Source of the DNA: an uncultured Ruminococcus sp.
Lineage (GTDB): Bacteria > Bacillota > Clostridia > Oscillospirales > CAG-272
Assembly (NCBI GenBank): GCA_902778985.1
Contig: CACYZS010000043.1
Coordinates: 1-12,001, forward strand
Reading direction: 5' to 3'
DNA length: 12,001 nucleotides
Below, piece by piece: positions 687-11,927 of the stretch (positions are counted from its first letter, which is position 1; each line of letters opens with the position of its first letter). The position numbers were made by a program, and so were the translations under genes. The notes beneath the pieces were generated by a model. The model was not told the DNA's origin, made no database searches, and saw nothing but the letters and a program-made list of their open reading frames with translations.

Positions 687-2309
687 ATGGATCAACCGTT
701 CATCAGTCTGCTCTGGCCGGACGCCGCGGCGAAGGAGCGCCATACCGATCCCCGGAACCGTCCCGACGTGCGCGACAGCGTGTGCCGTGAGATCGGTCTG
801 ACCGGGCTTCTGGGGCTTCGCGACGGCTCGCCCGTCGGGTTCTTCACCTACGAGCCCGAGGTGATCCGCTACCGCGAGGCGACCTTTGAGGATCTTCTCT
901 CGATCCCCGAACTCGGCAAGACGCTCTCGGACGTCGTGCCGCTGCTTTCGGATATCACGGAACTGCGCCGGCTCGACCGCGATCTCGGTTCTTCGTCGGG
1001 CGAATCGTACCTGTACAGCATCACCGAGATCGAACTCTATATCGCGGTGATCGACCTGCTCCACAAGGGGCTCGCCCCCGTCAAAGACAAGATCAAGAGC
1101 CCCGCGTTCGGGACGCTTTCGTCCTTCATTTCGGAGTACGCCGAGAGCGAGTACTACAAGGATCTGAACGACCGTCTGAAACAACTCTCCTCGCGGGTGC
1201 GCGAGATCCGGAGCATCACGGTCGGCGTCAACCTCGACGCCGAACTCCGTCCCGCCGAGGCGGGGGTGCTCTCGGTCAACGCCGAACCCTTCCGCTCGGA
1301 AAAGGTGCTCGACAAGATCCTGCGCCTTTCGTTCAAAAACGACGCGATGACCTGCATCGCCGCGCTGACGCCCTTCGGAAAAGGGCAGTCCGACAACCGC
1401 CGCGAGGCGCTGATCGGCGCGTTCAACGCGGCGATTGAGGACGTGTTCCGCTCGTCGGTCAAGTCGTGGCGGAATATCGTCGGCGAATACGTGATCGAAA
1501 ACACCGATTTCATCCTCCGGCTTCTGCCCGAGATCGAGTTCGTCACGCGGGGGGCGGCGCTGATGAAGCGGCTCTCCGACCGGGGGTATCCCGTGGTCGT
1601 GCCGACGCTCTCGCCCATGCAGAACAAGGACTTTTCCGCCGAGGGGCTCTACAACCCCGACGTGGCGCTCCGGATCGAAGAGGAGATCGTCGAAAACGAT
1701 TTTGCGTTCGACGAAAACGCCCGGATCTACGTCCTGACGGGACCGAACCGCGGCGGGAAATCGGTCGTGACCTGCGCCGTCGGACTTGCGCAGGCGATGA
1801 CGCAACTCGGTCTGCGCGTTCCGGCAAGATCCGCCGTGATCAGCCCGGTCGACGGCATCTACACGCATTTTCCCGAAGGGGCGGACGACACCATCGACAA
1901 GGGGCGGCTCGGGGAAGAGTGCGCGCGGCTGCGCGAGATCTTCGATTCCGTGACCGAGAACTCGATGATCCTGCTCGACGAGTCGCTTTCGTCGACCGGG
2001 GCGTACGAGGCGTCGTATATCGGGCAGGAGATTTTGACCGGGTTCGGCGTCGCGCGCTGCCGCGGGATCTTCTCGACCCACCTGCACGAACTCGCCGCCG
2101 CCGTCCCCGAGGTGAACGAAAAGATCCGGGCTGCGGGCGGCGTTCCGGTCGATACGCTGGTCGCCGGGATCGAGGAGGGGCGCCGGAGTTTCAAGATCGT
2201 GCGCGCCAAACCCGACGGCAAGAGTTACGCCCGCGACATCGCGAACAAGTACGGGCTCTCGCTCTCGGATATCGAAAAGCGCCTTGCGGAACGCAAGAAC
2301 AACGCCTGA
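687..2309 (+). CDS. MutS-family ATPase without mismatch-recognition domains
   Basis: A 540-residue protein whose C-terminal half is a MutS-type ABC ATPase: Walker A TGPNRGGKS (351-359; canonical MutS has TGPNMGGKS), Walker B MILLDE (427-432) followed by a serine-rich segment where MutS carries GRGTST, and the H-loop STHLHEL (463-469). The C-terminal KSYARDIANKYGL resembles the end of the MutS ATPase core. The N-terminal 340 residues are mostly helical with charged stretches, compatible with the core/lever region. The mismatch-binding domain I (the Phe-x-Glu wedge) is absent, and so is the Smr nuclease domain of MutS2. It is therefore neither MutS1 nor MutS2 but one of the shorter MutS-like families, whose roles are poorly known. 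GGAGG six bases before the ATG supports the start; a strong terminator follows. It is divergent from dUTPase, a possible link to DNA or nucleotide integrity, but that link is inference. Confidence 0.85.
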   Translation: MDQPFISLLWPDAAAKERHTDPRNRPDVRDSVCREIGLTGLLGLRDGSPVGFFTYEPEVIRYREATFEDLLSIPELGKTLSDVVPLLSDITELRRLDRDLGSSSGESYLYSITEIELYIAVIDLLHKGLAPVKDKIKSPAFGTLSSFISEYAESEYYKDLNDRLKQLSSRVREIRSITVGVNLDAELRPAEAGVLSVNAEPFRSEKVLDKILRLSFKNDAMTCIAALTPFGKGQSDNRREALIGAFNAAIEDVFRSSVKSWRNIVGEYVIENTDFILRLLPEIEFVTRGAALMKRLSDRGYPVVVPTLSPMQNKDFSAEGLYNPDVALRIEEEIVENDFAFDENARIYVLTGPNRGGKSVVTCAVGLAQAMTQLGLRVPARSAVISPVDGIYTHFPEGADDTIDKGRLGEECARLREIFDSVTENSMILLDESLSSTGAYEASYIGQEILTGFGVARCRGIFSTHLHELAAAVPEVNEKIRAAGGVPVDTLVAGIEEGRRSFKIVRAKPDGKSYARDIANKYGLSLSDIEKRLAERKNNA

Positions 2310-4941: not shown

Positions 4942-6768
4942 ATGTGCTCGATTTGCGGACTGTTTGCGCCCCGGAAGATCACGCCGGAGAAGATCGACGC
5001 GGTGCGTCGGATGGGGGAGACCATGCGCTCGCGCGGTCCCGACCGCGCGGGGAGTTACGCCGACGCCGATACGGCGTTCCATCACAACCGGCTGGCAGTG
5101 ATGGATCCCGCGCGGGGCGATCAGCCGATGACGGTGCGCCACGGGCGGCGCGCCTACACCGTCGTCTACAACGGGGAACTCTATAACGGCGCAGAACTCC
5201 GGCGGGAACTCTCGCGCCACGGCGTCCGGCTCCGGACGAGGTGCGACACGGAACTGCTGGTCTACGCCTACGCCGTCTGGGGGGAGGAGTGCCTTTCCCG
5301 CCTGAACGGGATCTACGCCTTCGCGGTCTGGGACCGGGCGAGGGAAACGCTCTTCTGCGCGCGCGATCCGCTCGGCGTCAAGCCCTTCTGGTACGCCACG
5401 CCCGGGGGCGAATTCTGCTTCGCGTCGGAGATCAAGGCGCTGCTCGCCCACCCGGATATCCAACCCGAGATCGGGCGGGAGGGGCTCTGGCAACTGCTGT
5501 TCCTGACTCCGGTCACGCTGCGTTCGACCCCGGTTTTCCGGGGGATAACCGAGTTGCGCCCGGGCGAATGCCTGACGGTCACGGCGGCGGGGATCAAAAA
5601 GCGCGCCTTCTTTCGCCTCGCGGCGGAGCCCTTTTCCGAGAGCCGGGAGGAATGTATCGCTCACGTGCGGGAACTGGTCGCCGACGCGATCAGGCGGCAG
5701 ACCGAGAGCGACGTGCCGCTCGCCTGTTTTCTTTCGGGCGGGCTGGATTCGTCCGTTGTCGCGGGGATCGCCGCCGCGCGCTTTCGCGAGAGGGGCGAAA
5801 CCCTCTCGACCTATTCGTTCGAGTACGAGGACAACGAGTACGCGCCCACCCTGTTTCAACCCAACCGCGACGACGGCTACGCCCTGCTTGCCGCGCGGGC
5901 GTTCGGGACCGACCACACCGTACTGGTCGCCCCGAACGAAGAGGTGGCGGCGCTGCTCGACGCGGCGACCGAGGCGCGGGATCTGCCGGGGCAGGCGGAC
6001 GTGGATTCGTCGCTTCTGTACTTCTGCCGCGAGGTCCGGCGGCGGCATACCGTCGCCCTCTCGGGGGAGTGCGCCGACGAGATCTTCGGCGGCTATCCGT
6101 GGTTCTACCGCCCCGAAATGCTCTCCCGCGACTTCTTCCCGTGGATCCACGATCCCCTGGCGCGGATCTCGCTTTTCCGGCACGAGTTGGTCGCCCCCGA
6201 AGAGGGGCTTGCGTACCTCTCCGAGCAGTACCGGCGGGTCGTTTCGTCGGTCGAATGCCTCGACGAAGACGACGACGCGATGCGGCGGTCGCGGATCGCC
6301 TCGGTGCTTTCGCAGTCCTATTTCATGCAATCGCTGCTCGAGCGCAAGGATCGGATGTCGATGGCGAACGGGCTGGAAGTGCGCGTTCCGTTTTCGGATC
6401 ACCGGATCGCGTCGTACCTCTACAACGTCCCGTGGTCGTATAAATTCGAGAACGGGGTGGAGAAGGCGCTGCTCCGGGAGGCGATGCGCGACGTGCTGCC
6501 CGACGCGATCTACCGCCGCAAGAAGAGCCCCTACCCGAAAACCCACAGTCCCCGCTACGAGAGGGCGGTGCTCGATCTTTTGAAAAACCGGCTGGCGCGC
6601 CCGGGATCGCGGCTCGCCGGGATGGTCGATCCCGAAAAACTCGCCTCGCTCCTGGACGGCGGGGAGGACGTGACCTGGTTCGGGCAACTGATGGCGCGAC
6701 CGCAACTGGTCGCGTGGCTTTGCCAGTTCGACGACTTCTGTGAAAAGTACCGCGTCGCGTTTGTTTGA
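4942..6768 (+). CDS. asnB: Asparagine synthetase (glutamine-hydrolysing), AsnB type
   Basis: Uses glutamine-derived ammonia and ATP to convert aspartate to asparagine in the cytoplasm. The 608 residues comprise an N-terminal class II glutamine amidotransferase domain (about 2-200) and a C-terminal synthetase domain. After Met removal the nucleophile would be Cys2; RGPD (31-34), YNGELYN (76-82) and CDTE (101-104) are the expected glutamine-site motifs. The ATP pyrophosphatase loop is LSGGLDSS (264-271), with SGECADEIFGGY (374-385) and RKDRMSMANGLEVRVPF (468-484) further on. The N-terminus reads MCSICG instead of the common MCGIAG, so the residue after the nucleophile is serine. GGGAGGG six bases before the ATG supports the start. 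The gene stands alone; no strong terminator follows. A specialised amidotransferase of the same fold is possible, but nothing nearby suggests an antibiotic or glycan cluster. Confidence 0.92.
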   Translation: MCSICGLFAPRKITPEKIDAVRRMGETMRSRGPDRAGSYADADTAFHHNRLAVMDPARGDQPMTVRHGRRAYTVVYNGELYNGAELRRELSRHGVRLRTRCDTELLVYAYAVWGEECLSRLNGIYAFAVWDRARETLFCARDPLGVKPFWYATPGGEFCFASEIKALLAHPDIQPEIGREGLWQLLFLTPVTLRSTPVFRGITELRPGECLTVTAAGIKKRAFFRLAAEPFSESREECIAHVRELVADAIRRQTESDVPLACFLSGGLDSSVVAGIAAARFRERGETLSTYSFEYEDNEYAPTLFQPNRDDGYALLAARAFGTDHTVLVAPNEEVAALLDAATEARDLPGQADVDSSLLYFCREVRRRHTVALSGECADEIFGGYPWFYRPEMLSRDFFPWIHDPLARISLFRHELVAPEEGLAYLSEQYRRVVSSVECLDEDDDAMRRSRIASVLSQSYFMQSLLERKDRMSMANGLEVRVPFSDHRIASYLYNVPWSYKFENGVEKALLREAMRDVLPDAIYRRKKSPYPKTHSPRYERAVLDLLKNRLARPGSRLAGMVDPEKLASLLDGGEDVTWFGQLMARPQLVAWLCQFDDFCEKYRVAFV

Positions 6769-6831: not shown

Positions 6832-6845
6832 CGGATGGGGAAATC

Positions 6846-6874
6846 TTGACAAAAACCGCGGCGGGTGGTATAAT
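6846..6874 (+). promoter_or_regulatory. Perfect consensus sigma-70 promoter for the riboswitch-flotillin transcript
   Basis: TTGACA (6846-6851) and TATAAT (6869-6874) are separated by 17 bp, a 12 of 12 match to consensus. Transcription should begin near 6881, so the mRNA opens almost directly with the riboswitch aptamer. A promoter this strong in front of an intrinsic terminator fits control at the level of transcript elongation. Confidence 0.93.
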
Positions 6875-6883
6875 GAAACCGTC

Positions 6884-6988
6884 GAAAGGGAGTAGTACGT
6901 TGCCACCGTGCAGCGTGCGAACGTCGTCAACACGGCAGTTGCAAATGCCCGGCGTTCGCGGGATCAGAAATGATTTTACAAGACTTTT
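6884..6988 (+). promoter_or_regulatory. yybP-ykoY family riboswitch (manganese sensing)
   Basis: The leader matches the yybP-ykoY aptamer in motif order and fold. The P1 5' strand GAAAG (6884-6888) runs into the conserved loop GGGAGUAG (6888-6895). P2 is CGUUGC/GCAGCG (6898-6903, 6910-6915). The next arm is GCGAACG/CGUUCGC (6917-6923, 6953-6959), containing the conserved GUCGUCAA (6923-6930) and an inner GGCA/UGCC hairpin (6934-6949). An AUCA-GAAA-UGAU hairpin follows (6963-6974), then the conserved CAAGAC (6979-6984) and the P1 3' strand CUUUU (6984-6988). Family knowledge: Mn2+ bridges the two conserved loops and stabilises P1. Here the P1 3' strand is also part of the terminator's 5' arm, so metal binding should prevent termination and turn expression on. 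The gene served is a flotillin, which is unusual for this class. Confidence 0.85.
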
Positions 6989-7016
6989 ACTGTGCACACG
7001 GTAAAAGTCTTTTTTT
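6980..7016 (+). terminator. Riboswitch-controlled intrinsic terminator
   Basis: AAGACTTTTAC (6980-6990) and GTAAAAGTCTT (7001-7011) form a perfect 11-bp stem with a 10-base loop, running into seven T residues (7010-7016). The 5' arm overlaps the conserved CAAGAC and the 3' strand of aptamer helix P1, so the two structures exclude each other. This is the expression platform of the manganese-type riboswitch and would end transcripts about 135 bases after the start when the aptamer is unbound. Confidence 0.92.
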
Positions 7017-7082
7017 GTAGACTATACCGATCGACAAACCCAAGGGTATGAACAAACCAATTTATCAAAGGGGGTATTTACT

Positions 7083-8492
7083 ATGTTGTTCATCATTCTC
7101 GGAATCGTTGCCGCAGTCCTCGTGTTCCTCGGCATCCTCGGGTACCTGAAAGCACCGCCGGACACGGCGTACATCATCTCGGGTCTCGGGAAAAAGCGGA
7201 TCCTCGTCGGTAAGGCGGGGTGGCGCATCCCGTTTTTCGAGAGAGTCGACCGCCTGTCGCTGCGCGTGATGCAGGTCGACGTCAAAACGAGCGAAGCGGT
7301 CCCGACCAACGAATTCATCAACGTCACGGTCGACGGCGTCGCCAACATCAAGATCTCGTCCCAGCGCGAGTACCTCGAACGGGCGGCGGAAGCGCTGCTC
7401 GGTATGAAGCAGGGAGAACTGATCTCGATGGTCACGCAGGTTTTGGAAGGTAATATGCGTGAGATCGTCGGTTCGGTCGGCCTGAAAGAGATGGTGCAGG
7501 ACCGGCAGGGCGTCGCCAAGAAGATCACCGAAAACGTCGTGCCCGATATGCAGAAACTCGGCATCGAGGTCGTGAACTTCAATATTCAGAACTTCAAGGA
7601 CGCCGCCGGGACCATTGAGAACATGGGTATCGACAACGTCGAGCAGATCCGCAAGAACGCGCAGATCGCCAAGGCGAACGCGCAGCGCGACATCGCGATC
7701 GCGACCGCCAACGCGCAGCAGGAGGCAAACGCCGTCCGCGTCGAAGCCGAGAAGAAGATCGCCGAACAGAACGCGGCGCTCTCGGTGCAGCAGGCGGATA
7801 TGAAGGTCCGCGCCGACACAAAGAAGGCGGAAGCCGACGCCGCGTACTCGATCCAACAGGAAGAGCAGCGTCGGACCATCGAGGTCGCCAAGACCAACGC
7901 CGACATCGCCCGCCGCGAGAAGGAAGCCGAACTTGCCGAGAAGGACATCGCGATCAAGGAACGCCAACTCGACGCCGAAGTGCGTAAACAGGCGGACGCG
8001 ATGAAGTATCAGGCGGAGAAACAGGCGGAAGCCGACCTCATCAAACGTCAGAAGGACGCCGAAGCCAAGAAGTACGAGGCGATGCAGGCGGCGGAAGCCA
8101 AGAAAGCCGAAGCCGAGGCGCTCCGCTTCGCGATGGAGCAGGAAGCCGAAGGTATCCGCGCCAAAGGTCTTGCCGAAGCGGAAGCGATCGAAAAGAAAGC
8201 CGAAGCGCAGAAGAAGATGGGCGAGGCGTCGGTGCTCGAAATGTACCTCAACGCGCTGCCTGAAGTGGTGAAGAACGCCGCGACTCCTCTCGCCTCGACC
8301 GAGAAGATCGTCATGTACGGCGAGGGCAACTCCACCAAGGTCGTTCGCGACGTGATGACCAGCGCCAACCAGGTCATGGAAGGCGTGAAGGAATCCACCG
8401 GTATCGACCTGCCCTCGATCATCGCCGGATACGCCGGCGGGATCGCCGCCAAAGGCGGAAAGAAGGACGGGAAGTCCGAGAAGAAGGACTGA
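7083..8492 (+). CDS. Flotillin-like SPFH (band 7) membrane protein
   Basis: Flotillins are membrane-anchored scaffold proteins that oligomerise and organise membrane domains. The 469 residues begin with a hydrophobic segment (2-21), followed by an SPFH domain (about 22-190: PPDTAYIISGLGKKRILVG, then VNVTVDGVANIKI-like strands and an amphipathic stretch around NVEQIRKNAQIA). A long Glu/Ala/Lys-rich coiled coil with repeated AEA motifs runs about 190-380, and a Gly-rich then Lys-rich tail ends the protein. This order and length fit bacterial FloT/YuaG. An AAGGGGG ribosome site lies about eight bases before the ATG. Expression should be governed by the upstream manganese-type riboswitch and its terminator. 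No NfeD-like partner, common beside bacterial flotillins, is visible; the next gene encodes a different membrane protein beyond a hairpin array. Confidence 0.9.
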   Translation: MLFIILGIVAAVLVFLGILGYLKAPPDTAYIISGLGKKRILVGKAGWRIPFFERVDRLSLRVMQVDVKTSEAVPTNEFINVTVDGVANIKISSQREYLERAAEALLGMKQGELISMVTQVLEGNMREIVGSVGLKEMVQDRQGVAKKITENVVPDMQKLGIEVVNFNIQNFKDAAGTIENMGIDNVEQIRKNAQIAKANAQRDIAIATANAQQEANAVRVEAEKKIAEQNAALSVQQADMKVRADTKKAEADAAYSIQQEEQRRTIEVAKTNADIARREKEAELAEKDIAIKERQLDAEVRKQADAMKYQAEKQAEADLIKRQKDAEAKKYEAMQAAEAKKAEAEALRFAMEQEAEGIRAKGLAEAEAIEKKAEAQKKMGEASVLEMYLNALPEVVKNAATPLASTEKIVMYGEGNSTKVVRDVMTSANQVMEGVKESTGIDLPSIIAGYAGGIAAKGGKKDGKSEKKD

Positions 8493-10088: not shown

Positions 10089-10241
10089 TTACTGTTTCTC
10101 GAACATATCCTTGCCGAGTCCGCAGAGGGGGCAAACGTAATCTTCGGGGAGATCCTCCCACTTCGTGCCCGGCGCGATACCGTTGTCGGGATCGCCCTTG
10201 TTTTCGTCGTATTCGTAGCCGCAGGGGCAAGCGTATTTCAT
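10089..10241 (-). CDS. Rubredoxin with its own start inside the fused frame
   Basis: A small non-haem iron electron carrier, often involved in oxygen or peroxide detoxification. An ATG at 10241 with AAGGAAGG eight bases upstream starts a complete 50-residue rubredoxin: [12 protein letters not shown], the family core [20 protein letters not shown], and the second iron site [10 protein letters not shown]. Both sites are present, but the first reads Cys5-Pro-Cys7 rather than the usual Cys-x-x-Cys, one residue short. Codon use (GAC, CTC, CCC) matches the first 10 kb and not the protease. The same residues form positions 563-612 of the longer fused frame; the private ribosome site and full domain length argue that this is the natural gene. 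Confidence 0.75.
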
Positions 10242-11927
10242 CGCTGAATCCTTCCTTATTTCTTGCCTTTGGCTGAATTTCTTGCCTTTGGCTGACTTCT
10301 TGTCATCGGCCTTCTGAGGGAAAGCGGCCTTGTTGCGGAACACCTCAAGGGTCTTGTTGATGGCAGGGTCGTTCTGGTTGAGATACTCCATCCAGGCTTC
10401 CTCGTCCAGCATGTTGTAGATGATGCGGCTGTAGATATATTTCTCAAACAGTCCCTTCGACTTCTGCAGCATCAGGTTGCGGCGCTGCAGACCGTTCTTC
10501 TCAGCGTAGTCGGCAAACTTCTCCAGCAGGTTCTGGTGCTTCAGGTGTGCGAGGAGCCCCTGCATTGTCTTCATGTCTTTCAGCTTGTCGCGGTTGTCGT
10601 CGGTATATTCAAAGGCAAACTGGATGATCAGGCCGCTCATGGCTGCTTCTTTGTAATAGGATGTGATGCCGGTGGTGTCCTCGGGAATGAAGATGTCGGG
10701 GGTGATGCCGCCGCCGCCATATACGGTGCGGCCCAGAATGGTGTGGTATTCGGGACCGGTGTGCTTGATGCTGTCCTCGCTGAAATACTCGCCGTGCTCA
10801 TAGCGCACAAGCAGGTCTTCCTCGTAGTCCTTGTCCTTGCCGGTGGAGTAGGGCTTCTGAATGCAACGGCCGGAAGGGGAGTAGTACCGGGCGATGGTGA
10901 GGCGGATCATGCTGCCGTCGGTAAACTCTATCTGCTTCTGTACCAATCCTTTGCCGAAGGAACGGCGACCAATCACCGTGCCGCGGTCATTGTCCTGGAT
11001 GGCACCGGCCAGAATCTCTGAGGCCGAGGCCGAACCCTCGTTGATGAGCACCACCAAGGGAACGTCCTGATAGGTGCCGCGTCCGGTGCTCGTGAAGATC
11101 TCACGGGGCTGCTTGCGGCCTTCAGTATAGACGATGCGGCGGTTCTTGGGCAGGAATTCGTCGGCTATCTGGATGGCGGAGGCCATGTAGCCGCCGCTGT
11201 TGTCGCGCAGGTCTATCACCAGGTTCTCAAAACCGTGCTGCGAGAGCATCGTGAGCGACGACAACATCTCACCATAGGTGTTCTCGCCGAAATTCTTGAT
11301 GCGGACATAGCCGGTCTTCTCGCCGAGCATGTAGGCGGCGCTGATGCTGCTGGTGTAGATGTCATCACGGGTGATGGTGAAGTATTTGGGCTTCGTCTGC
11401 TTGTAACGGAGCACGCCGATCTTGACTTTCGTGCCGCGGGGACCTTTCAGGCGGCGCATGGCTTCCTCGTTTGTCACCTCCTCGCCGACGAAGGGCTCGT
11501 CATTGATGCTCACGATCTTGTCGCCGGCCAGCACGCCTGCGTTCTCGGCAGGTCCGCCCGAGATCACGTTCTGCACATGGATGGTGTCCTTGCGGATCAC
11601 AAACTCGATGCCCACACCGGAGAATGAGCCGCGGAGGTCATCGTTGGCGGACTGTACATCTTTCGCACTGATATACACGGAGTGGGGGTCAAGCTCATTG
11701 AGGATCTCTGGAATGGCTTTCTCCACCAGGTCGTTCATGTTGACACTGTCCACATATTGGTCGTCGATGATGTGGAGCAGGTTGTTCAGACGGTTGCTGC
11801 CTGAATTGATAATGCTCAACCGGTTGCCGGAGAAATGCTTGGCGAAGAAGGTGCCGATGAGGATTCCCACCACCACGCAGGCGGCCAGGATGAGGGGCAT
11901 GTACCGATTGGTCTTATTCAGATTCAT
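10089..11927 (-). CDS. S41 carboxy-terminal processing protease, fused in frame to rubredoxin
   Basis: One open frame of 612 residues. Residues 10-29 form a membrane anchor, so the protease domain is exported. The linker to a PDZ domain contains [11 protein letters not shown] (99-109), and the PDZ region runs to about 190. The S41 catalytic core carries the [10 protein letters not shown] motif (296-305; S301 is the expected nucleophile) and the general-base lysine K326 in SFGKG. Such proteases cleave C-terminal tails of envelope proteins. Length, sequence style and lack of a Shine-Dalgarno site resemble Bacteroidota enzymes of about 550 residues. Residues 551-562 are read from a duplicated 19-bp segment and the rubredoxin leader, and 563-612 are the rubredoxin. 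An exported protease joined to a cytoplasmic electron carrier makes little functional sense. The fusion is probably a frame accident or an assembly join, so the reliable protease is about residues 1-550 (10,27x-11927). Confidence 0.8.
10258..10295. repeat. Perfect 19-bp tandem duplication at the protease-rubredoxin junction
   Basis: The 19 bases at 10258-10276 are repeated exactly at 10277-10295. Nineteen is not a multiple of three: with both copies the protease frame reads on into rubredoxin, while removing one copy puts the TAA at 10258-10256 in frame directly after AKGKK (residue 550). The duplication also lies at the point where codon use changes, so it may mark a join between two source genomes. 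Confidence 0.93.

What the first reader, a model, noticed from the sequence alone, without database searches (positions are those of the whole stretch)
6846..7120. Manganese-type riboswitch placed in front of a flotillin
The yybP-ykoY aptamer is known upstream of Mn2+ exporters (MntP, TerC-like, P-type ATPases). Here it lies between a perfect consensus promoter and a flotillin-like SPFH gene, with no metal transporter between. The P1 3' strand is shared with the terminator, predicting Mn2+-dependent switching on. This would tie membrane-domain scaffolding to manganese status, a link I do not know from the literature.
Basis: partly seen in the sequence, partly recalled or inferred. Interest (0 to 1): 0.8.

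Follow-up and report, generated by a model that had tools for sequence, protein, structure and literature searches.

The report
Manganese-type RNA switch controlling a flotillin
A gut bacterium carries what looks like a known manganese-sensing RNA switch directly in front of a gene for a membrane-organising protein (flotillin) instead of a metal pump, and many related bacteria keep this pairing, which suggests that manganese levels control membrane organisation.

Summary
In detail: perfect promoter, 106-nt aptamer (6883-6988), terminator overlapping its P1.1 3' strand, flotillin (7083-8492), no transporter between.
Rfam's RF00080 does not hit this copy. But the leader precedes the flotillin in 22 of 28 same-genus genomes with an ortholog and 49 of 76 evaluable named loci; the sets overlap: 59 distinct leaders, 48 outside the model's training set. 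Pairs covary strongly. RF00080 hits two flotillin leaders at 28 bits, under its cut-off. A model of exporter leaders alone ranks the window copy first in the window (E 0.007); a flotillin-only model finds exporter leaders.
The L1 core is invariant and the Mn-sensing adenosine is kept in 47 of 50 rows; five leaders of one clade depart. A strong terminator using the P1.1 3' strand occurs in 46 of 49 leaders versus 7 of 245 shuffles.
I read it as a Mn2+ ON switch for a flotillin. Four prohibitin-like SPFH genes carry the element too. Mn2+ binding is untested. FloT/FloA are reported to co-purify with Mn exporters.

The parts
6846..6874 (+). sigma-70-type promoter, TTGACA - 17 nt - TATAAT with TG before the second hexamer
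   Evidence: 12 of 12 consensus letters; TTGACA and a -10-like hexamer precede the leader in the eight other flotillin leaders printed (L003, L004, L006, L007, L008, L009, L012, L029)
6883..6988 (+). yybP-ykoY (Mn2+) type riboswitch aptamer, divergent subclass
   Evidence: R1 108 bits (copy is in the training set); R2 from exporter leaders only, E 0.007; covariation
6884..6888 (+). P1.1 5' strand (GAAAG), pairs with 6984-6988
   Evidence: structure; 98% of cells paired over 49 distinct rows
6889..6895 (+). L1 5' part GGAGUAG (sarcin-ricin-like loop in the solved aptamers)
   Evidence: letters at 6890-6894 invariant in 50 of 50 rows, 6889 in 48, 6895 in 49
6898..6915 (+). P2 hairpin (6898-6903 with 6910-6915)
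   Evidence: 6 of 6 pairs with two-sided changes
6917..6925 (+). P3.1 5' strand, pairs with 6951-6959
   Evidence: 8 of 9 pairs with two-sided changes
6926..6933 (+). L3 metal-site loop G-UCAACAC; A6929 is the counterpart of the Mn-sensing A41 (L. lactis) / A48 (X. oryzae)
   Evidence: C at 6928 50 of 50, A at 6929 47 of 50 rows; A41/A48 role from passages of PMC6754395
6934..6949 (+). P3.2 hairpin (6934-6937 with 6946-6949)
   Evidence: 4 of 4 pairs with two-sided changes
6951..6959 (+). P3.1 3' strand
6961..6976 (+). P4 hairpin (6961-6966 with 6971-6976), least conserved helix
   Evidence: 76.8% of cells paired
6980..6983 (+). L1 3' part AAGA, also start of the terminator 5' arm
   Evidence: letters at 6981-6983 invariant in 50 of 50 rows
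6984..6988 (+). P1.1 3' strand (CUUUU), shared with the terminator
   Evidence: sequence
6980..7016 (+). intrinsic terminator (stem-loop 6980-7011 plus U-run) that excludes P1.1
   Evidence: counterpart at -14 kcal/mol or better in 46 of 49 flotillin leaders versus 7 of 245 shuffles; weak in L109, L125, L135
7070..7074 (+). Shine-Dalgarno-like GGGGG, 8 nt before the start codon
   Evidence: sequence
7083..8492 (+). flotillin-family protein (SPFH/Band_7 plus Flot), 469 aa

Best explanation
The leader 6883-7016 is a transcriptional ON riboswitch of the yybP-ykoY (Mn2+) class. Shown by comparison: the helices and loops of that aptamer (P1.1, L1, P1.2, P2, P3.1, L3, P3.2, P4; helix names partly recalled) and a terminator built on the P1.1 3' strand. 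Inferred from the solved class members: when Mn2+ is high, L1 and L3 dock around Mn2+ held by A6929, P1.1 is stabilised, the terminator cannot form and the flotillin is made; when Mn2+ is low, transcription stops before the flotillin. Inferred for physiology: the flotillin is induced as part of the response to Mn2+ surplus, probably to organise or stabilise membrane proteins that export Mn2+ or that Mn2+ excess disturbs.
For: Conservation: 22 of 28 same-genus genomes with an ortholog (11 of the 22 leaders are R1's training set) and 49 of 76 evaluable named loci (4 identical to training leaders); together 59 distinct leaders, 48 not in training. The gene after the flotillin is not conserved (67 sequences, largest cluster 5, naive ORF script). 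Covariation: 91% of cells paired, 28 of 31 pairs and 364 cells with two-sided changes versus 22.6 and 109 in shuffles (alignment fitted to the model); on the MAFFT alignment of 11, 16 of 32 pairs versus 7.0. Metal-site letters conserved. P1.1/terminator exclusion in 46 of 49 versus 7 of 245 shuffles. Homology to exporter switches both ways: RF00080 on L034/L035 (28 bits); R1 on 9 of 20 exporter leaders, E 5e-6 to 0.007; R2 on the window and on 21 of 25 chosen flotillin loci. R1 also finds leaders of cation P-type ATPases, Na/Ca-type exchangers and MntP. The window's L3 (UCAACAC) resembles the L. lactis loop (UCAAUUC); many MntP loops here (ACAUACU) equal that of X. oryzae (solved loops). FloT/FloA co-purify with Mn exporters in B. 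subtilis.
Against: No Rfam hit on this copy, none on the 8 leader-bearing loci among 10, and in 40 named genomes chosen for carrying the leader none of RF00080's 13 hits is a flotillin leader. The best flotillin leaders reach 28.4 bits of 45; exporter leaders found in these relatives also stay under the cut-off (best 36.2; 0 of 40 genomes over it). R2 is modest: only 6 of the 21 leader matches have E<0.01, and one unrelated place (other strand of L098, 19.8 bits, E 0.02) outscores the window's 17.2 bits. The element is dispensable: 6 of 28 same-genus orthologs and 27 of 76 named loci lack it, and 41 of 69 same-genus genomes, many incomplete, show no close flotillin. Five leaders of one clade change the Mn-sensing base or its neighbourhood. 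R1 also finds Na+-decarboxylase beta subunits and CitMHS-like carriers, which I do not know as Mn exporters. No flotillin among 29 classified class-level hits. No TerC in the own genome. Mycobacterial FloT is excluded from zinc-efflux foci and not needed for zinc resistance (PMC9374683 passages). No ligand was tested.
Confidence: 0.8

Rival explanations
1. The aptamer belongs to the yybP-ykoY fold but this subclass has shifted its ligand (another divalent ion such as Ca2+, Fe2+ or Cd2+, or a broader metal response), and so reports something other than Mn2+ to the flotillin.
For: Flotillin leaders differ enough from exporter leaders that RF00080 lists none of the 8 leader-bearing loci and none in the 40 genomes. 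One genome can carry both kinds (G001: L007 flotillin, L033 MntP). Targets of R1 include Na/Ca-type exchangers, OAD beta subunits and CitMHS carriers. Five leaders have a natural change at or beside the sensing base.
Against: The sensing adenosine and L1 are kept in nearly all leaders. The window's L3 is of the L. lactis kind, a studied Mn2+ sensor. Related ATPases carry both loop forms: the ATPase behind L286 is 80% identical to that of L085, yet L286 has AUCAACAUC and L085 CGUCAUCUC.
Confidence: 0.14
2. The leader is a remnant: the fold is conserved for RNA stability or constitutive attenuation and no longer switches in the window's organism.
For: Presence is patchy: at least 9 changes on the flotillin tree. 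The own mntP has no detected aptamer, so the Mn circuit here may be decaying.
Against: Both mutually exclusive structures, the metal-site letters and the promoter are intact in the window, and pairs covary across the set.
Confidence: 0.05
3. Not a riboswitch: chance resemblance plus an ordinary terminator.
For: Rfam negative on this copy; one terminator-like site is within chance.
Against: Conservation, covariation and model cross-matches listed under the best explanation.
Confidence: 0.01

Closest known systems
yybP-ykoY / Manganese riboswitch, Rfam RF00080; L. lactis (upstream of yoaB, abstract in the listing) and X. oryzae aptamers
   Same: L1 GGAGUAG with GA-rich 3' partner, helix order, L3 with the metal-sensing adenosine, P1.1 3' strand shared with a terminator (class facts from passages of PMC6754395 and PMC11087558)
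   Different: Below Rfam detection in the window and below the gathering score elsewhere; target is a membrane scaffold, not a metal transporter
Bacterial flotillin FloT (NCBIfam NF058507, Pfam PF15975/PF01145)
   Same: Band_7 and a sub-threshold Flot region; FloT model matched over nearly the full length
   Different: Scores under the FloT equivalog cut-off (273 versus 700 bits); no conserved following gene
TerC-family Mn exporters MeeF/MeeY with FloT/FloA in B. subtilis
   Same: A physical Mn-exporter/flotillin association is in print (PMC10550928, passages; my reading of a flattened table: FloT under MeeF, FloA under MeeF and MeeY)
   Different: Protein co-purification, no riboswitch on the flotillin mentioned in the passages seen; no TerC found in the window's genome

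Membership tests
yybP-ykoY (Mn2+) riboswitch, RF00080 | Covariance-model score at or above Rfam's curated cut-off | tested here: not met
   No hit on the window; flotillin leaders L034/L035 28 bits versus 45. This is a database threshold, not a feature of the RNA: MntP and ATPase leaders of these relatives fail it too (0 of 147 genomes over it, 0 of 40). Membership is argued from the features below
yybP-ykoY (Mn2+) riboswitch, RF00080 | L1 motif GGAGUAG with GA-rich 3' partner | tested here: met
   Window 6889-6895 and 6980-6983; near-invariant in 50 rows
yybP-ykoY (Mn2+) riboswitch, RF00080 | L3 with the Mn-sensing adenosine | tested here: met
   A6929; 47 of 50 rows, five leaders of one clade depart
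yybP-ykoY (Mn2+) riboswitch, RF00080 | Four-way-junction helix order with covarying pairs | tested here: met
   28 of 31 pairs with two-sided changes; MAFFT alignment, 16 of 32
yybP-ykoY (Mn2+) riboswitch, RF00080 | Homology to exporter-linked members | tested here: met
   R2 from exporter leaders only: window E 0.007, 21 of 25 flotillin loci, 6 of them with E<0.01; R1 on 9 of 20 exporter leaders; RF00080 on L034, L035
yybP-ykoY (Mn2+) riboswitch, RF00080 | P1.1 3' strand shared with the expression platform (ON switch) | tested here: met
   Window 6984-6988 inside terminator 6980-7011; 46 of 49 leaders versus 7 of 245 shuffles at -14 kcal/mol
yybP-ykoY (Mn2+) riboswitch, RF00080 | Mn2+ binding and Mn2+-dependent expression | not testable with these tools
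   needs in-line probing or transcription assay
Flotillin | SPFH/Band_7 domain followed by a flotillin C-terminal region | tested here: met
   Band_7 well over its cut-off; Flot 25.6 bits versus 27, so just under; PDB flotillin-1 E 5e-51 over residues 25-446
FloT (NCBIfam equivalog) | Curated equivalog cut-off | tested here: not met
   273 versus 700 bits; I call it flotillin-family, not FloT

The most novel reading that the evidence does not exclude
SPFH scaffolds are standing members of the Mn2+-overload regulon in this bacterial order: Mn2+-type riboswitches sit on two distinct SPFH lineages (flotillin, and prohibitin/HflK-like proteins in L224, L258, L274, L279), so Mn2+ status directly rebuilds membrane microdomains, perhaps as platforms for Mn2+ export or for metal loading of secreted proteins. 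In the window's own lineage the flotillin has kept the switch while mntP shows none.
Probability: 0.4. Interest if true: 0.85.

Novelty: new variant of a known kind. Interest (0 to 1): 0.72.

Why it matters
Why bacteria make flotillins, and when, is poorly explained (my own view of the field). A conserved metal switch on the gene gives a concrete signal (Mn2+), a prediction (induction by Mn2+ surplus) and a way to test it with a few nucleotides. It would extend the outputs of the Mn2+ riboswitch class from metal transporters to membrane organisation, and fits independently with flotillins co-purifying with Mn exporters. It also shows that Rfam's model misses most flotillin-linked members found here, so the regulon is probably under-counted in these gut Clostridia.

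Tried and rejected
Rfam hits other than RF00080: SSRC10 at 14 bits on the window leader is noise; none of the 12 hits was RF00080. Using Rfam alone as arbiter: rejected, because MntP and ATPase leaders of these relatives also fail its cut-off. A conserved operon around the flotillin: not seen, the next gene differs from locus to locus. TerC in the own genome: none found (genome 86% complete). Second aptamer in the own genome: none by pattern, RF00080 (best 7.5 bits) or R1, and none upstream of its mntP. The pairing outside the order: 0 flotillins among 29 classified of the 57 class-level hits besides the window (28 not fetched). L3-type counts are rough and I do not use the totals: the pattern misassigns loops such as those of L258, L077 and L277. 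Rows dropped: for the 50-row letter counts one noise row, L108:2885; for R2, 14 of 20 exporter leaders were used (L041, L186, L188, L189, L191 and L194 left out; four of these were missed by the pattern of the script); for, 25 flotillin loci were chosen out of those held; for, 40 of the 49 leader-bearing named loci were given. The terminator search had no control; one search added one. Structure prediction, fold search and the protein homology search were not used.

Full report
Observation. The window has a perfect sigma-70 promoter at 6846-6874, a leader, a stem-loop at 6980-7011 with a U-run, and a flotillin-family gene at 7083-8492. The gene before it, 4942-6768, is an asparagine synthase-type protein; no transporter lies between leader and flotillin.

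Rfam is silent on this copy. RF00080 gives nothing at gathering or at E<=10 on 6840-7090, and its best hit in the own genome is 7.5 bits elsewhere.

The leader is conserved. Among 59 relatives, 27 had some match to the protein; the close ones lie in the same genus, and the same promoter-leader-terminator unit precedes most of those with upstream sequence. Eleven leaders were aligned. With the structure read from the window copy, 86.7% of cells pair and 16 of 32 pairs show changes on both sides, against 79.0% and 7.0 in shuffles; sliding the partners lowers pairing to 33-50%. A covariance model of these eleven (R1) finds the leader in 22 of 28 same-genus flotillin loci, one per genome (28 of 69 genomes have an ortholog at E<=1e-100). 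Of the 22, 11 are the training leaders. In 80 named loci from another collection it hits 49; 4 of the other 31 hold too little upstream sequence (one of these, L144, shows the 3' half of the element), so 27 lack it. Four of the 49 equal a training leader; both sets together give 59 distinct leaders, 48 outside training. On the 51 aligned matches (49 distinct rows, fitted to the model), 91.1% of cells pair with 364 two-sided changes against 109 in shuffles. Of those 51, one is noise (L108:2885, E 0.91) and one (L113:477) lies over 3 kb upstream of its flotillin.

It is the Mn2+ riboswitch fold. RF00080 reaches two flotillin leaders in sister genomes, L034 and L035, at 28 bits. Its other hits precede MntP, cation P-type ATPases or Na/Ca-type exchangers at 17-36 bits, all under its cut-off of 45. 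In the 40 named genomes, chosen because they carry the flotillin leader, it found none of those leaders. R1, built from flotillin leaders only, recognises 9 of 20 exporter leaders at the expected place, E 5e-6 to 0.007. In the other direction R2, built from 14 exporter leaders found by RF00080, ranks 6883-6988 first in the window (17.2 bits, E 0.007, runner-up 9.2 bits) and lists the flotillin leader in 21 of 25 loci given, E 1e-6 to 0.46, six below 0.01; one place on the other strand of L098 is listed at 19.8 bits, so scores of this size are not proof alone. The agreement of position across loci carries the weight.

The metal site. In the solved aptamers an invariable adenosine (A41 in L. lactis within UCAAUUC, A48 in X. 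oryzae within ACAUACU) contacts Mn2+ through N7, and A10 of L1 makes the docking contact (PMC6754395, passages). The window has UCAACAC at 6927-6933 with the adenosine at 6929. In 50 rows (49 flotillin leaders and L113:477) the L1 letters GAGUA are invariant, the C before the adenosine is invariant, and the adenosine is kept in 47. Five leaders of one flotillin clade (L107, L114, L125, L130, L135) read GACUAAA: three have U in that column, two an inserted U before it.

Switch direction. In L. lactis Mn2+ stabilises P1.1, whose 3' segment otherwise joins the terminator (PMC11087558, passages). In the window the P1.1 3' strand (6984-6988) lies inside the terminator 5' arm. A script found a hairpin taking up this strand before a U-run in 49 of 49 flotillin leaders, at -14 kcal/mol or better in 46, against 7 of 245 tails shuffled behind the same strand; L109, L125 and L135 are weak. 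Hence an ON switch is predicted. In the fold of the full leader the terminator forms, as expected without ligand.

What else carries it. In 69 same-genus genomes R1 gives 36 hits in 33 genomes: 22 flotillin, 9 cation P-type ATPase, 4 OAD beta subunit, 1 unknown membrane protein (family models were run on four of the ATPases and three of the OAD subunits, the rest read from sequence or by BLAST). In 394 genomes of the order 73 hit; of the 77 hits besides the window, tblastn assigns 20 ATPase, 20 Na/Ca-type exchanger (weak identities; Pfam run on one), 10 OAD beta, 9 flotillin and 3 MntP. The 15 others include 4 prohibitin/HflK-like SPFH proteins (Pfam Band_7 in all four), about 7 CitMHS/ArsB-like carriers read by eye (Pfam run on two; L226 and L231 are the least sure), 2 Na/Pi cotransporters (Pfam run on one), 1 relative of the unknown protein (42% identity) and 1 unclear. 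In 391 genomes of the class 57 hit, the own included; of 29 hits classified none is a flotillin, 12 are OAD beta and 10 ATPase. So the flotillin pairing was seen only within this order in these scans, and a second SPFH lineage has it too: the prohibitin-like protein L224 shows no significant BLAST match to the flotillin (best E 0.41).

History and context. On a tree of the 80 named flotillins presence needs at least 9 changes (4 forced by well-supported branches) against 22.5 for shuffled labels, and both sides of the midpoint contain it; this fits an old pairing with repeated loss, but direction was not tested. The own genome has mntP without a detected aptamer upstream, as do six close relatives (L203-L208) and G028 (L209), while mntP of G012, G062, G071 and G087 has one (R1 E 3e-5 to 0.011). 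Within an 86% complete genome the flotillin is therefore the only target I detected.

Physiology is inference. MeeF and MeeY, Mn exporters of B. subtilis, co-purify with FloT and FloA (PMC10550928, passages), which would make a Mn2+-induced flotillin sensible. Against it, mycobacterial FloT is excluded from zinc-efflux foci (PMC9374683, passages), and the own genome shows no TerC. Literature searches: yybP-ykoY with flotillin gives one work, the MeeF/MeeY paper; with SPFH none; riboswitch, flotillin and manganese in bacteria list four papers and riboswitch, flotillin and upstream seven, which apart from the MeeF/MeeY paper I judged by title and start of abstract only. Most subscription papers are not held, and the two founding papers could not be read, so novelty in print is not proven.

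Noticed in passing
L062/L082, L065/L083, L068/L084, L074 and 22 further loci: The same riboswitch model sits upstream of genes for Na+-translocating decarboxylase beta subunits (OAD_beta, PF03977): 4 in the genus, 10 of 77 hits in the order scan, 12 of 29 classified in the class scan. These may be unrecognised Mn2+-responsive or Mn2+-exporting proteins.
   Followed up: partly
L107, L114, L125, L130, L135 (aptamers): One flotillin clade has GACUAAA where the other leaders have GUCA or GACA at the Mn-sensing base; three resemble the A41U/A48U change that spoils Mn2+ sensing in the studied aptamers.
   Followed up: partly
L081 (601 aa), L269 (562 aa): A membrane protein with no Pfam or NCBIfam match follows the riboswitch in two genera (42% identity).
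   Followed up: partly
L224, L258, L274, L279:318-1118: Prohibitin/HflK-like SPFH genes behind the same riboswitch; in L279 a second copy follows in front of a Na/Pi cotransporter-like gene.
   Followed up: partly
window 10089-11927, minus strand: One reading frame joins an S41 peptidase with PDZ domain to a C-terminal rubredoxin domain.
   Followed up: no
window 687-2309: A MutS-like protein with only domain V recognised by Pfam.
   Followed up: no
L005 / L099, upstream of the flotillin: In G008 the flotillin has a strong promoter but a different short inverted-repeat leader (AAGGCAGACCGUC...GACGGUAUCUGCC) in place of the aptamer.
   Followed up: no
L004:2960-3040: A Gut-1 RNA match under its cut-off (39.2 bits of 50) lies just behind the flotillin of a sister genome; motifs such as CACTTCACTTT and AACTTCAC are seen behind flotillins of close kin.
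   Followed up: no
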